A DNA stretch of 64,000 bases from the NCBI GenBank assembly GCA_018667335.1, contig JABIVD010000027.1, positions 124,001 to 188,000 on the forward strand. The letters are read 5' to 3'. A program made the position numbers and the translations under genes. This DNA is from Rhodospirillaceae bacterium. Lineage in GTDB: Bacteria; Pseudomonadota; Alphaproteobacteria; UBA6615. The stretch's first letter is position 1. Every line of letters begins with the position of its first letter. The notes under the pieces are model-generated. The model searched no databases and had not been told where the DNA came from. It was given only the letters and a program-made list of their open reading frames with translations. Positions 2,984 to 61,255 of the stretch are shown here, in pieces.

Positions 2984-3325
2984 CTAGGGCTTCTTGTATT
3001 CGATTTCCAGGGCGATCAGCGGGCTGTCGCTGACCACGGTCACGTTGTGTTCGAACCCGTCGCCCACCTCGTAGAACGTCGCGGCGCCCTTCTTCGAGGC
3101 CATTGTCGACGGCGCATCGCCGCCGCCGCGCTCGATCTGCACGTCGCTGTCGCCGAAATGGTAGCCGACGTAATCGAGATCGTGGTTGTGCCAACCCGAA
3201 CTCTGGCCCTTTTCGATGTGATGAAACGTTATTCGGGTCGTCTCATTATCGATCAGGACCTCGTAGTGGCCGCGCTTGTCTTCGGCCACTTCGATGCGTG
3301 TTTTCTCTTCGAGTTTCCGCGACAT
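2984..3325 (-). CDS. Small single-domain cupin protein, copy 2 of a tandem pair
   Basis: 113 aa, one conserved beta-barrel cupin domain. Motif 1 appears as GQSSGWHNHDLDYVGY (residues about 40-55), with His-x-His as likely metal ligands, and motif 2 as GFEHNVTVV near residue 88. No other domain or signal peptide is visible, so it should be cytosolic. It is clearly paralogous to the cupin encoded 10 bp upstream (3336-3665): both begin MS(R/T)KL.EKT, share a GW-H-HD-DY core and end LEIEYK. The two are probably cotranscribed. Substrate and reaction cannot be told; similar small cupins are often annotated only by fold. Confidence 0.8.
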   Translation of the reverse strand: MSRKLEEKTRIEVAEDKRGHYEVLIDNETTRITFHHIEKGQSSGWHNHDLDYVGYHFGDSDVQIERGGGDAPSTMASKKGAATFYEVGDGFEHNVTVVSDSPLIALEIEYKKP

Positions 3326-3665: not shown

Positions 3666-3749
3666 GCACTCTCTCCTGAAATCTCTGTACGAATTTACAC
3701 CGCAAATATCAGACCGCGTAAAGGGCATTCATGCGTTGGCCGGAGCACG

Positions 3750-6700
3750 CTAGATTTCCTGCACGTCCACGACGCCATGAATGGCGCGCATGGCCCGGTT
3801 CAACTCCGGCGTACACAGATAGCCACCATCGAGGCGGACGATGACGTCCTGCTCGCCATCGGGAATGACGAGCCGGATCCGGCCATTGCCGCGCTTGCCC
3901 TCGCCCGGACGCGCCTCGCGGTCGATCAGGGTCTTCAGCGACCCGATCGACTCCATGCCCTCGACCCAAATCTTGATGGCGACGGGTGCGCTGGCCGCCG
4001 CCGCTGCGAGCTCACGCACGCTCTGGCCGGTCAAACGAAGCTGGCCTTCCTCGAACCGCGCTGCCGTCTGCACCAGCACGGGTTTACCGCTCTCCAGCAA
4101 CTCGCGCGTCGCGGCCAGGACCTCGGCAAACATTGTGATCTCGAATGTCCCCGCGGCGTCGGACAGTTGCACGAACGCGTATCGGCTGCCCCGTTGGGAT
4201 GTGCGTTGCTGCACCGCGATCACCGACCCCGCGAGCACCACATTGGCAGCCCCACCCTGGCGCTCGACGGTCTGTTCGAGCTCGGTGCTGCCGACGACGC
4301 CCAGGCGATCGAGCAGCTTCCCGTAATCGTCCAGCGGATGGGCGGACATGTAGAACCCGACGGCATCAAGCTCGCGCTGCAGCCGGTCCGGCTGGGGCCA
4401 ATCCGCACGGTCGAACGGCTCGGGCGCCGGCAGACCGCCCTCTTCACCGGGATCGCCAAGCAGGCTGAACTGGCCGCTCTCGCGTTCGCGCTGAATGGCT
4501 TGCGCATGCCCGAGAATCTGGTCGATCGAATCAAACGTCCGCGCGCGGTTGCCATCCAGGCTGTCGAACGCGCCCGCCTGAACCAGCTGTTCGAGCTGGC
4601 GGCGGTTCAGAATATGCGCGTCGAGCCGGCTCGCCACCTCGTACGGGCTGTCGAACCGCCCGTTGGCCTCGCGCTCCTGGACGAGATCGCCCATCGCGGC
4701 CTGGCCCACGCCCTTGATGGCAGACAGCGCATAGTGGATGCCGCCAATCGACACCGGTTCATCATCTTCAGCCGCCGCCTGCTGTGTCGCCGCATCCAAA
4801 TTGATGGACGCGACCGTGAAATCAACGCCCGAGAGGTTGACGTCGGGCGGCAGCAGATCGATGTGGTGACGCGCCAGTTCCTGCTTGTAGATCGCCAGCT
4901 TGTCCGTGTTGCCCATGTCCAGCGTCATGGACGCGGCAAAGAACTCGACCGGGTAATTGGCCTTCAAATACGCCGTCTGGTAGGCGATCAGGGCATAGGC
5001 CGCCGCATGGGCCTTGTTGAAGCCGTAGCCGGCGAATTTGGCGATGGTCTCGAAGATGCGAGTGGACGTCGCCTCATCGACCCCGCGCGCCGCAGCACCC
5101 GCGACGAAGGTCTCCTGCTGAGCGTCCATTTCGGACTGGATCTTCTTGCCCATGGCCCGGCGCAACAGGTCGGCGCCACCGAGCGTGTAACCCGCCAATT
5201 CCTGAGCCATCTGCATCACCTGTTCCTGATAGATCGGGATGCCGTAGGTCTCCTTCAGGCATTGCTCCAGATCGTCATGCAGGTAATCGACCTCTTCGGT
5301 GCCGTGCTTTCGCGAGATGTAGCTCGGGATATTGTCCATCGGGCCAGGTCGGTAGAGCGCGACAACGGCGATGATGTCTTCGAACCGGTCGGGTCCCAGC
5401 TTGCGCAGCACGTCGCGCACGCCGGAGGATTCACACTGGAACACGCCCGTCGTGTCGCCGCGCGCCAGCATTTTGAACGTCCCCTCGTCATCCAGCGGCA
5501 AGGTGGCGAGATCGACCTCGACATCCCGGTCGGCCAGCAATTCCACGGCTTTCTGCAGCACATCCAGGGTCTTCAGGCCCAGGAAATCGAACTTCACGAG
5601 GCCCGCCGCCTCGACATACTTCATGCTGAACTGGGTCGACAGGGTCGCGGAGCGCGGATCGCGGAACAGCGGAACGATGTCCGACAACGGCCGGTCGCCG
5701 ATCACAACGCCGGCGGCATGGGTCGACGAGTTGCGATACAGCCCTTCGAGCTTGAGCGCGAGATCGAGCAGATGCGCGACCGCCTCATCCTCTTTGCGCA
5801 TCGCCTTGAGAGCGTCCTCGCTGTCGATGGCCTGCTGCAGGGTCATGGGGTTGGCCGGGTTGTTCGGCACCATCTTGGCGATCCGGTCGACCTGCCCGTA
5901 GGGCATCTCCAGGACCCGGCCGACGTCGCGCACCACGGCGCGCGCCTGCAGCTTGCCGAAGGTGATGATCTGCGCCACCCGGTCATGGCCAAACTTCTGC
6001 TGCACGTAGTGGATGACCTCGTCCCGCCGCTCCTGGCAGAAATCGATGTCAAAGTCAGGCATCGACACGCGTTCCGGGTTCAGGAAGCGCTCGAAGAACA
6101 GACCGAAGCGCAACGGGTCAAGATCCGTGATCGTCAACGACCAGGCCACCGCCGATCCGGCGCCCGAACCGCGGCCCGGCCCGACCGCCACGCCGTTCGC
6201 CTTGGACCATTTGATGAAATCCGAAACGATCAGGAAATAGCCCGGATATCCCATATTAACAATGGTTTCGAGCTCGAACCTTAACCGATCTCTGTACGGT
6301 TTGGCGGCCTCTTCGCGGGCTGCCGCATCCATATCCTCGGTGAACACATGGGCGACCAACCGCGCTTCGAGCCCCGCCTCGGCTTCCGTCGTGAGCTCCT
6401 GCTCCTCTGTCCGCCCTTCCTCCGTCGGATAGGGCGGCAGCATCGGTGCGGTCTCGGTCGGCATAAACGCGCAGCGCCGGGCCACCACGAGCGTGTTTTC
6501 GATCGCTTCGGGCAAATCAGCGAACAAGGCACGCATTTCCGCCGCAGACTTGAAGCGATGCTCCGATGTCACCCGCCGACGCTCCGACTGGGATACATAG
6601 GCGCTTTGCGAGATGCACAGCAGCGCGTCATGGGCCTCATACATGCCCTCGTCCGCGAAAAACGCCTCATTGGTGGCGAGCAGCGGGATGTCGTGTTCGT

Positions 6701-58858: not shown

Positions 58859-59650
58859 TCAGGACCACTTGGTCTTGGGCTTTTCCTGTTCGACGCCATC
58901 GACGAAGACCGCGTCCACCTGCTCGTTGAAGAAGCAGAGATAGTCCTTGATGCCCGCGCTCTCATGCACCGGGTCGCGATAGAACCAGACGATGTCTTCG
59001 AAGGTCTTCGCGCCGACCTGGACGTGATGGTAGCTGGCCGTGCCTTTGTACGGGCAGTTTGTCTCTGTCTCGGACGGACGCAATTCGGCGATCACGTCGT
59101 CACGCGGAATGTAGTAGCGGGTCGGCAAGCCGGTCTCGAACAGGAACCGCGCCCGCGTCGTCTCGGCCACCGTGATACCGCCCAGCTCGATGCGCACGGG
59201 GCGCGAGCTGTCCAGAATGTCTACCCGCACCTTCGGACTGCGGGCGTGGACGAAGACCTCTTCGTCCTCCTCGTGCCAGGCATCCATCTTTTTCCAGTAG
59301 AAGGCCAGGTAGTCCTTGAGCCCGGCTGCCTCGTCGAACGGCTGCTCATAGCTCCACACGGCGTTCTCGGCCGTCTGTCCGCCCGCGTTCACCGTGAAGT
59401 AACTGGCGTCGCCCTTGAACGGGCAATGGGTCGAATGATCGGTCCCCGTCAGCAGGTCCATCGCCACGTCATCCCGCGGGAAGTAATAGACCGGCACATG
59501 GCCACGCTCATAAACGATCAGGCCGTCGGTCGTATCGACGATCGTTTTGCCACCGAAGGCAACGCGGATGCGCTTCGGGCTTCGCTCGAAATTCACAAAA
59601 TGCTCCGGCATATCTTTGTAACCCGGTGCCGGGCCTGCAGTTTCGGTCAC
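58859..59650 (-). CDS. Double DUF427 protein
   Basis: 263 aa made of two DUF427 domains, about 25-125 and 145-245. Each contains the domain's pattern: RVAFGGKTIVDTT...YYFPRDDV...CPFKGDASYFTV...WSYEQP, repeated as RIELGGITVAETT...YYIPRDDV...CPYKGTASYHHV...WFYRDP. Many members have one domain. Function unknown; the fold is a small beta-rich barrel. Start is the GTG at 59650 with GGAGG 7 nt upstream; it overlaps the TAG of a gene remnant (TAGTG), a trace of an older coupled pair. Confidence 0.88.
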   Translation of the reverse strand: MTETAGPAPGYKDMPEHFVNFERSPKRIRVAFGGKTIVDTTDGLIVYERGHVPVYYFPRDDVAMDLLTGTDHSTHCPFKGDASYFTVNAGGQTAENAVWSYEQPFDEAAGLKDYLAFYWKKMDAWHEEDEEVFVHARSPKVRVDILDSSRPVRIELGGITVAETTRARFLFETGLPTRYYIPRDDVIAELRPSETETNCPYKGTASYHHVQVGAKTFEDIVWFYRDPVHESAGIKDYLCFFNEQVDAVFVDGVEQEKPKTKWS

Positions 59651-59811
59651 TATCGTCCTCCATTCGCTTGGCGTGGAATTCTCACCGCCAGATCAACATT
59701 AACTGCCACATCACCGACCCCATACACCTGGTCGTTCGTGCGCGGTCGGACTAGCCAAGTCCTTGTCGCCAGTATGCCTCCCGACAGGGAACGGGTGAAG
59801 GGTTGCCGATG
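59650..59811 (-). pseudogene. Decayed 3' fragment of a paralogue of the 60399-60812 secreted-protein gene
   Basis: Read on the minus strand from 59811 the frame gives QPFTRSLSG, then VRPRTND, VYGVGD, VDLA and RQANGGR, ending TAG at 59650. The intact gene at 60399-60812 ends QPFTRSLSG, VRLRAND, VHGVGG, VDLA, RQADGGRS. By hand I count 31 of 51 identical residues with no gaps. There is no start codon, signal peptide or N-terminal half. The nucleotide match is strong around CCAGATC and CCGACCCCAT and fades upstream of 59811. Interpreted as the leftover 3' end of a duplicated gene. Confidence 0.75.
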
Positions 59812-60004
59812 ACAGGAGACCCGCAGACCGCGCCGGCAATTATCATGGCGATGCCCAGTTGCGAATGCGAACGCCTCACAATCTCATAAGCTTTTGATAA
59901 ATAGCCCTAATTTGAACAATTAGCTGGTGCATTTGAAAGACGACCGATACATTTCCGGTTGAGATATATCCCCGGCTATCGCCAGCCAAACAGGAGTAGA
60001 TGAC
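59812..60004. other. AT-richer spacer before the Cys-repeat peptide gene
   Basis: No coding gene seen. Noticeably more AT-rich than its surroundings from about 59880. A weak sigma-70-like pair, TTGATA and CAATTA with 17-bp spacing, begins near 59894. A Shine-Dalgarno AGGAG lies at 59992-59996. Presumably carries the promoter for the plus-strand peptide gene. Confidence 0.45.
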
Positions 60005-60301
60005 ATGTCTATTGAAACCGTTGTCCTGATGGACCTCCAAGATGAAGCACTCGATGCGCCGACCCAGGTAGCCTCATCTTGCGCGAAATGTTTCGTTTGC
60101 GTCTGCGTCGGAATTCACGACGAAACTCTGGAAGGACCGGCCCAGGAAGCCTCGACTTCCGCTCCGCGTATCGATTGCGTCGAACTCAGCGACGAAGCGC
60201 TCGATTCACCGTCACAGCTAGCCTCATCTTGCGCGCGCTGTTTCGTTTGCGTCTGCGTGGGCATCGGCGACGAGACACTCGAAGCACCGGCAGCCCGCTA
60301 G
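60005..60301 (+). CDS. Repetitive Cys-rich peptide, candidate multi-core RiPP precursor
   Basis: 98 aa, start ATG with AGGAG 8 nt upstream. After MSIETVVLMDLQ come four head-to-tail units: residues 13-38, 39-62, 63-88 and 89-98. Units 1 and 3 read DEALD-x-P, then ASSCA(K/R)CFVCVCVGI, and agree at 21 of 26 positions. Unit 2 keeps DETLEGPAQEAS but has lost the Cys block; unit 4 is only DETLEAPAAR. Thus each possible core has spacing CxxCxxCxC right after ASS, and each is preceded by an acidic D-E-A-L-D helix-like segment. VELSDEALD recalls heterocyclase recognition elements in some RiPP leaders (from memory). The same Cys spacing with an aromatic residue after the second Cys occurs in the methanobactin core (CGSCYPCSC). 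It could instead be a small metal-binding protein. No signal peptide. No YcaO, DUF692, radical-SAM, LanM or transporter gene is in the window. Codon use looks less GC-biased than neighbours. Confidence 0.72.
   Translation: MSIETVVLMDLQDEALDAPTQVASSCAKCFVCVCVGIHDETLEGPAQEASTSAPRIDCVELSDEALDSPSQLASSCARCFVCVCVGIGDETLEAPAAR
60041..60298 (+). repeat. Four tandem units within the Cys-rich peptide gene
   Basis: Units at 60041-60118, 60119-60190, 60191-60268 and 60269-60298. Units 1 and 3 share exact stretches GCCTCATCTTGCGCG and TGTTTCGTTTGCGTCTGCGT. Units 2 and 4 keep only the GACGA-xA-x-CT-GA start. The A-B-A-B similarity suggests that a two-unit block of about 150 bp was duplicated. Confidence 0.85.
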
Positions 60302-60330
60302 TCGCGGTTGCGATCAGTTAAGAGCGCGAA

Positions 60331-60358
60331 CGGGCCGGAGGATGTCTCCTCCGGCCCG
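60331..60358. terminator. Stem-loop between convergent genes
   Basis: Perfect 12-bp stem CGGGCCGGAGGA / TCCTCCGGCCCG with loop TGTC, 29 bp after the peptide gene stop and 40 bp beyond the minus-strand gene end. No T-tract on either strand, so it may act as a bidirectional or Rho-assisted terminator or as a 3' stabiliser. Confidence 0.6.
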
Positions 60359-60398
60359 TGACCGTGCGCATAGAAAGAGGGTTGGGCCTGCGGATCGC

Positions 60399-60812
60399 TC
60401 ACGACCGTCCGCCATCCGCCTGGCGCGATTTGCCCGTCGCCAGATCGACAATCAACTCTACCCCGCCGACCCCATGCACCTTGTCATTCGCGCGCAACCG
60501 GACCTCCTTGGTGCCAGCCGGCAATTTGACCCCGGACAAGGACCTGGTAAACGGCTGCTCGTTGACATGGGGATGGGCCAGGACCCGGGTCGCCAGCACC
60601 TTTCCGTCTAGACTCAACACTTCCCAGCGGTTGGCGTAGTGCTCCCAGCCTTCATCGGCATGGCGCACCGTCACACTGAAGCTGTAGGTGCTGCCGGTGC
60701 GCAGCGCGACGGCGGTCACGTCCGCCTCGCCCGCCATGGCCGTGCCACTGACCGTCGCAAACCCGAGGGTCGCGCCGACAAGCATCGCTGTGATTCCTAT
60801 TCTCCGCATCAT
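60399..60812 (-). CDS. Secreted conserved protein of unknown function
   Basis: 137 aa from the ATG at 60812, whose ATGA overlaps the thioesterase stop; the next codon is also ATG (60809). The frame to 60929 lies inside the thioesterase gene and is rejected. Signal peptide about 1-27 (ends GTAMA). The mature part is one beta-rich domain with VTVRHADEGWEHYANRWEVL and LAHPHVNEQPFTRSLSGV, a pattern I recognise from unnamed proteobacterial periplasmic proteins. The His of HADEGWEH and HPH could bind metal, which is speculation. A degenerate copy of its 3' end lies 590 bp downstream. Confidence 0.7.
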   Translation of the reverse strand: MMRRIGITAMLVGATLGFATVSGTAMAGEADVTAVALRTGSTYSFSVTVRHADEGWEHYANRWEVLSLDGKVLATRVLAHPHVNEQPFTRSLSGVKLPAGTKEVRLRANDKVHGVGGVELIVDLATGKSRQADGGRS

Positions 60813-61255
60813 GCGCTCATGGTCTCCTGTTCGATCTCGCGTGGTTTTCCGTCCGGTCCTATTGCCACATAGGTGAACACGCCTTCGGTCACTTTTTCGC
60901 GCACGAAACTGTCCCGGCGCAGCGTCCACACCTCGATCAGGAAGGTCATCGACGTCCGGCCGACCTTTTCGAGGTCGGCGTAACAGGACACGACATCGCC
61001 CACCTGGACTGGTTTCTTGAAGATCATGGATTCGACCGCGATGGTGACCGTGCGGCCGCCCGAATGGCTGCGCGCCGCGATTCCCCCGGCGATATCCATC
61101 TGTGACAGCAGCCAGCCGCCGAAAATATCTCCGTTCGGGTTGGTGTCGGCCGGCATCGCTGCGGCCTGAATGAACAATTCACCCCGCGGCTTTTCGCCGG
61201 GGTTTTCGCCGGAAGCGTCGCCGGATTCTTTGCTATCTGCGTTCTTCATTGTCAC
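60809..61255 (-). CDS. Acyl-CoA thioesterase, YciA type
   Basis: 148 aa hot-dog-fold thioesterase. MPADTNPNGDIFGGWLLSQMDIAGGIAA is the YciA signature with the catalytic Asp, followed by RTVTIAVESMIFKKPVQVGDVV. An N-terminal charged leader of about 25 residues (KESGDASGENPGEKPRGE) precedes it. Hydrolyses short to medium acyl-CoA. The second ATG (61249) is an alternative start. Overlaps the secreted-protein gene by 4 nt; divergent from parE. Confidence 0.9.
   Translation of the reverse strand: MTMKNADSKESGDASGENPGEKPRGELFIQAAAMPADTNPNGDIFGGWLLSQMDIAGGIAARSHSGGRTVTIAVESMIFKKPVQVGDVVSCYADLEKVGRTSMTFLIEVWTLRRDSFVREKVTEGVFTYVAIGPDGKPREIEQETMSA

What the first reader, a model, noticed from the sequence alone, without database searches (positions are those of the whole stretch)
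59650..60812. Cys-repeat gene sits inside a duplication scar: intact gene on one side, its decayed 3' end on the other
The fragment at 59650-59811 matches the last about 51 residues of the secreted protein at 60402-60566 (31 of 51 identical by hand, same strand, no gaps). Between the copies lies about 590 bp holding the opposite-strand peptide gene and an AT-rich spacer. The remnant's TAG overlaps the GTG of the DUF427 gene (TAGTG), so the older order was probably thioesterase, secreted protein, DUF427. The peptide gene then arrived between duplicated gene ends. The divergence means it is not recent.
Basis: partly seen in the sequence, partly recalled or inferred. Interest (0 to 1): 0.7.

Follow-up and report, generated by a model that had tools for sequence, protein, structure and literature searches.

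The report
Orphan modified-peptide gene beside duplication scar
A small Cys-rich gene that looks like the raw material for a family of enzyme-modified peptides was inserted long ago between two bacterial genes, duplicating their junction on both sides, and it survives in a genome where we find none of the enzymes that should process it.

Summary
Observation confirmed. The 59653-59811 fragment matches the 3' end of the secreted-protein gene (30 of 51 residues; E 7e-10 when scanning the genome). The scar is larger than described: a 184-bp block (60384-60567 and 59631-59814, 69.9% identical, E 6e-15) carries both the secreted gene's 3' end and the first bases of the DUF427 gene, and flanks a 569-bp insert. 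Ten relatives keep the two genes adjacent with no peptide gene, including two of the same genus. The fragment has drifted about equally from the intact copy and from the nearest relative, so the scar is about as old as that species split.

The inserted gene is the more interesting part. It belongs to a family of multi-core precursors, unmatched by any Pfam or NCBIfam model, in which every Cys-rich core is preceded by its own (L/V)xDEALD element. The two relatives with such precursors (G011, G022) also have a TOMM-type cyclodehydratase (YcaO) and a peptide exporter; one precursor has 16 units. The window genome has no YcaO, no such exporter and no partner DUF697 gene, so this is an orphan precursor, yet its frame, nine Cys and internal repeat (dN/dS 0.24) are intact. 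Modification and product are inferred, not shown.

The parts
58859..59650 (-). DUF427 (PF04248) gene, GTG start; intact, downstream half of the old row
   Evidence: Pfam E 2e-68; 90% identical to G005 and G006
59631..59814 (-). Copy A of the duplicated block: decayed 3' end of the secreted-protein gene plus the 5' end of the living DUF427 gene
   Evidence: blastn 69.9% to 60384-60567, E 6e-15; 30/51 residues
59653..59811 (-). Secreted-protein remnant (53 codons, TAG stop overlapping the DUF427 GTG)
   Evidence: hit at E 7.2e-10
59815..60383 (.). Inserted cassette between the two block copies (569 bp), absent from all relatives
59822..60004 (.). AT-rich spacer (GC down to 0.45 in 150-base windows, about 0.6 around), upstream of both the peptide gene (+) and copy A/DUF427 (-)
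   Evidence: composition profile
60005..60301 (+). Orphan multi-core precursor gene, 98 aa, 9 Cys: four (L/I)xDE(A/T)L(D/E) elements, two near-identical cores SSCA(K/R)CFVCVCVGI, one degenerate core, terminal element without core
   Evidence: profile built without it: 64.0 bits, E 2e-18, best of 2000 shuffles 9.8 bits; hits in G022 and G011
60330..60359 (.). Near-perfect inverted repeat just after the peptide gene (possible terminator; no T run)
   Evidence: self-blastn; terminator scan negative
60384..60567 (-). Copy B of the duplicated block: living 3' end of the secreted-protein gene plus DUF427 stub
60384..60402 (-). Dead 5' stub of DUF427 (GTGAGCGATCCGCAGGCCC) after the intact secreted gene
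   Evidence: aligns with the DUF427 start of copy A and of relatives
60399..60812 (-). Intact secreted-protein gene, 137 aa, no family assigned
   Evidence: 86% to G005, 79% to G006
60809..61255 (-). Thioesterase (4HBT) gene, upstream gene of the old row
   Evidence: Pfam E 7e-20

Best explanation
A 569-bp cassette with a multi-core RiPP precursor gene was inserted at the secreted-protein/DUF427 junction, in a single event that copied about 184 bp of the junction to both sides (like filling in a widely staggered break, a template switch during repair, or a single crossover with a circle carrying that junction). Both genes survived: the secreted gene kept its 3' end in copy B, DUF427 kept its start in copy A, and the spare halves decayed. 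The peptide is a precursor of the TOMM kind. Each (L/V)xDEALD element is the likely docking site for a cyclodehydratase (fused leader-binding + YcaO) that would turn Cys in the following core into thiazolines, after which the cores would be cut out and exported. In relatives the enzymes are present; in this genome they are not, so here the gene is an orphan. Shown: scar, insertion, family membership, gene linkage in relatives, absence of enzymes from the assembly. Inferred: docking, heterocycles, cutting, export, and the repair mechanism.
For: Block pair E 6e-15 containing both gene ends. Empty site in 10 relatives; insert DNA found only once, in G000. Membership: a profile built without the window's units gives 64 bits against a best shuffle of 9.8. 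G011 precursors lie beside TIGR03882/TIGR03604 cyclodehydratase parts, a TIGR01194 exporter and DUF697 genes; G022 has an 11-unit and a 16-unit precursor with DUF697 genes, and its YcaO and exporter lie together on another contig. G011 also carries two orphan precursors on another contig, at 0.41 and 0.98 Mb, so lone precursors occur elsewhere in the family. No YcaO, exporter or DUF697 relative in G000.
Against: No enzyme to act on the peptide is found in this genome, so a precursor role here and now is unproven. G000 is 96% complete in 62 contigs, so enzymes could be missing from the assembly. G022's YcaO and precursors are on separate contigs, and G011's YcaO is broken by frameshifts, so an intact linked cluster of exactly this family was not seen. 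The DEALD docking role rests on pattern. The single-event origin of the scar is a parsimony argument.
Confidence: 0.75

Rival explanations
1. The junction was first duplicated in tandem (secreted gene + DUF427), later trimmed by deletion, and the peptide cassette arrived separately in the leftover DNA.
For: Gives the same final layout; the two copies are old and diverged.
Against: Needs duplication, deletion and insertion, all placed between the copies; no relative shows a tandem intermediate.
Confidence: 0.2
2. Copy A came with the cassette from a sister lineage: homologous single-crossover integration of foreign DNA that already carried this junction.
For: Copy A is no closer to copy B than to G005 (66.7% each); the tree puts it with G005 at 83% support; it shares only 3 of 15 states derived in copy B.
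Against: Only 168 sites and a long, fast branch for copy A; 18 sites side with B and 18 with G005. The DUF427 divergence from G005 is like that of its neighbours.
Confidence: 0.25
3. The peptide gene is a dead relic, kept open by chance after the enzymes were lost or never came along.
For: No YcaO, exporter or DUF697 partner in the genome; the middle core is degenerate and the gene is absent from all other members of the genus searched.
Against: Frame, start and all nine Cys intact. Under neutral drift of 0.35 per site, simulation gives 9% for an open frame and about 0.1% for keeping all Cys. Internal repeats show dN/dS 0.24, interval 0.07-0.67, though that constraint may predate the insertion.
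Confidence: 0.35
4. The peptide is an unmodified Cys-rich protein (metal binding or similar), and the resemblance to TOMM precursors reflects ancestry only.
For: No modifying enzymes found; closely spaced Cys (CxxCxxCxC) in the cores.
Against: No metal-binding family hit; the repeated DEALD elements, conserved in all family members, have no obvious role in metal binding.
Confidence: 0.15
5. The enzymes are encoded in this organism but missing from the draft assembly, and the peptide is an ordinary, if distant, precursor.
For: Assembly of 62 contigs, 96% complete; G011 shows that precursors can lie far from the enzymes.
Against: YcaO, exporter and DUF697 all absent together, and absent from six other genomes of the genus.
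Confidence: 0.12

Closest known systems
Thiazole/oxazole-modified microcins (TOMMs; fused leader-binding/YcaO cyclodehydratase, TIGR03882 + TIGR03604)
   Same: Relatives of the peptide sit beside, or share a genome with, exactly these enzymes and an exporter; the cores are Cys-rich.
   Different: Each core has its own recognition-like element, up to 16 per protein; the window copy has no enzyme in its genome.
Cyanobactin precursors (LSEEAL-type recognition sequence, several cores per precursor; from memory)
   Same: Several cores per precursor, an acidic L..(D/E)EAL element. Weak Pfam hit to DUF5837 (E 0.018, below cut-off), a family that I recall as holding cyanobactin precursors but could not verify.
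   Different: Recognition element repeated for every core; cyanobactin proteases neither found nor sought; no family match at threshold.
[quoted passage not shown] PMC4603692)
   Same: Cys-rich repeats; precursor genes away from the modifying enzymes.
   Different: No sequence relation seen; there a cognate enzyme exists in the same genome, here none was found.

Membership tests
Multi-core DEALD precursor family of G011/G022 | Repeated units (L/V)xDE(A/T)L(D/E)xP..xA..C followed by a Cys-rich core | tested here: met
   64.0 bits with a profile that excludes the window; shuffles at most 9.8
TOMM biosynthetic system | Cognate YcaO cyclodehydratase in the same genome | tested here: not met
   No YcaO candidate in G000; found in G011 and G022
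TOMM biosynthetic system | Azole/azoline heterocycles installed on the peptide | not testable with these tools
   Needs mass spectrometry
TOMM biosynthetic system | Exporter of the family's type (TIGR01194) in the genome | tested here: not met
   No match to the G011 exporter at E 1e-20 in G000
Cyanobactin-like precursors / DUF5837 | Match to the family model above the curated score | tested here: not met
   15.7 bits against a cut-off of 25
Insertion with duplicated flanks | Direct repeat of neighbouring gene ends flanking an insert absent from relatives | tested here: met

The most novel reading that the evidence does not exclude
The orphan precursor has been kept by selection in a lineage without its enzymes, either doing a new job as an unmodified Cys-rich peptide or being processed by an unrelated, unrecognised enzyme; and the family spreads as single-gene cassettes that duplicate the target junction on insertion.
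Probability: 0.2. Interest if true: 0.7.

Novelty: new variant of a known kind. Interest (0 to 1): 0.45.

Why it matters
It links a small scar to a family of peptide precursors that no Pfam or NCBIfam model matched, with one recognition-like element per core and up to 16 different units in one protein. Such a layout would suit peptide-library engineering if the element really works core by core. The orphan copy offers a roughly dated case of a precursor gene outliving, or arriving without, its enzymes.

Tried and rejected
Recent duplication of the secreted gene: rejected by 30% divergence and the pattern of shared states. Ordinary transposon with short target repeats: no transposase-sized frame within the insert, and the repeat is 184 bp. 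Carriage on plasmids or viruses: no match to the window peptide or the G022 precursor in plasmids, none to the peptide in viral contigs. Wider spread of the family: the unit profile finds only G000, G011 and G022 among 24 genomes of the order, and nothing new in evenly drawn sets of 385 class and 398 phylum genomes. A profile alignment as scan query failed for lack of a conserved stretch. Whether the other G011 orphans were inserted the same way: no flanking block repeat at L075, a possible short one at L074. Searches of open papers for this architecture gave nothing that matched.

Full report
The duplication is real. The fragment at 59653-59811 matches residues 84-136 of the secreted protein at 60402-60812 on the same strand (E 7.2e-10 in the own genome; 30 of 51 identical). 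At DNA level the match is longer: 59631-59814 against 60384-60567, 184 bases, 69.9%, E 6e-15, far above shuffles. The extra length matters. After the intact secreted gene the sequence goes on as GTGAGCGATCCGCAGGCCC, which aligns with the start of the living DUF427 gene and with the DUF427 starts of relatives. So the duplicated piece is the junction of two genes, and each gene kept its living part on the far side of the insert.

Relatives give the empty site. In G005 and G006 (same genus) and in G011, G012 and G020 (same family) the row thioesterase-secreted protein-DUF427 is uninterrupted. In G013, G014, G018, G022 and G023 the secreted gene and DUF427 are also neighbours, within about 40 bases. 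The inserted DNA is found in none of 23 other genomes searched, nor a second time in the own genome.

Age. Copy A is 66.7% identical to copy B and 66.7% to G005, while copy B and G005 are 81.7% identical. Of 15 sites where copy B changed, copy A shares 3; overall 18 informative sites side with B and 18 with G005. Copy A differs from B at all three codon positions (65, 78 and 55% identical), as expected if one copy drifts freely and the other only at silent sites. The synonymous distance between G000 and G005 over the five genes is 0.52-0.80. The scar is therefore roughly as old as the split of the two species (inference from one short fragment). A tree groups copy A with G005 at 83%, so import of copy A together with the cassette from a sister lineage is not excluded; the data are too few to decide. 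Both copies have GTGA where most relatives have ATGA, which points the other way.

The inserted gene. The 98-residue peptide (60005-60301, +) consists of four (L/I)xDE(A/T)L(D/E) elements, two near-identical cores SSCA(K/R)CFVCVCVGI, one degenerate core and a last element without core. Genome searches found relatives only in G011 and G022. A profile built from their units alone scores the window peptide at 64.0 bits, E 2e-18, against 9.8 for the best of 2000 shuffles. G022 has precursors with 11 and 16 units (the longer one is cut by the contig end); each unit is a DEALD-like element followed by a core, most with two to five Cys. G011 has shorter ones.

What the family works like. In G011 two precursors lie next to the parts of a cyclodehydratase: leader-binding domain TIGR03882 (E 2e-22) and YcaO/SagD domain TIGR03604 (E 1e-60, below its curated score because the gene is split), with a cyclic-peptide exporter (TIGR01194, E 7e-91), a putative Band-7-like membrane protein (judged by eye only) and DUF697 genes. 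The G011 cyclodehydratase frame is interrupted, by decay or by assembly error. In G022 a YcaO piece and the same exporter share a contig; the precursors and DUF697 genes are on another. Further afield, G257 has a different multi-core protein with a repeated xISDEDLSAAS element beside a SagB dehydrogenase and a YcaO gene, and G402 has two small Cys peptides with LGDEALD/LADEALD beside a fused cyclodehydratase and a TIGR01194 exporter. These two are similar in motif only; their profile scores are not significant, so they are leads. Together they suggest that the (L/V)xDE(A/D)L element is the docking site of this type of enzyme. That is inference.

The window genome is different: no YcaO candidate at all, no match to the exporter at E 1e-20, no relative of the DUF697 proteins at E 1e-5. 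G000 is 96% complete. The peptide gene is thus an orphan, as are two precursors of G011 that lie far from its cluster (C2 at 0.41 and 0.98 Mb), but there the enzymes exist, at least in pieces. Is the window gene alive? For: frame and nine Cys intact; dN/dS between its two repeats 0.24 (0.07-0.67); simulated neutral drift of 0.35 per site leaves the frame open in 9% and all Cys in about 0.1% of runs. Against: no enzyme, a degenerate core, no homologue in six other genomes of the genus. Selection may have acted before the insertion, and the age rests on one short fragment, so a relic stays possible.

Verdict. The cassette is an orphan member of a multi-core TOMM-type precursor family that we found described nowhere in the libraries and open papers searched. 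The scar alone is ordinary genome evolution; the precursor family and its orphan give the finding moderate interest.

Noticed in passing
L031 1-1296 and 3598-4524 (G022): Two very large multi-core Cys-rich precursors, 16 and 11 units, with two DUF697 genes and a GNAT gene between them; no Pfam or NCBIfam model recognises the precursors.
   Followed up: partly
L074 4565-4618 (G011): Next to a G011 orphan precursor (4784-5056, -) lies a 54-nt copy of the 3' end of the neighbouring Sel1-repeat-like gene (3711-3764), 76%, E 4e-5: perhaps a second scar of the same kind, perhaps the tail of a lost paralogue.
   Followed up: partly
L074 about 4511-4547 (G011): A 37-nt element dispersed in more than ten copies over the G011 genome and in relatives.
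   Followed up: no
L116 5610-6218 (G257): Another multi-core precursor with its own element per core (xISDEDLSAAS) beside SagB and YcaO genes.
   Followed up: partly
L077 125-8396 (G008): A row of about ten precursor-like genes with a long shared leader (ARAWSDPDFKAQLLNDP...LSDEDLQNLAGGK) in front of a large gene with a YcaO match.
   Followed up: no
L033 about 3215-3235 (G005): At the empty site of G005 the first 15 bases of DUF427 are present twice in tandem (ATGAGTAAAACTGCC ATGAGTAAAACCGCA): another small duplication at the same junction.
   Followed up: no
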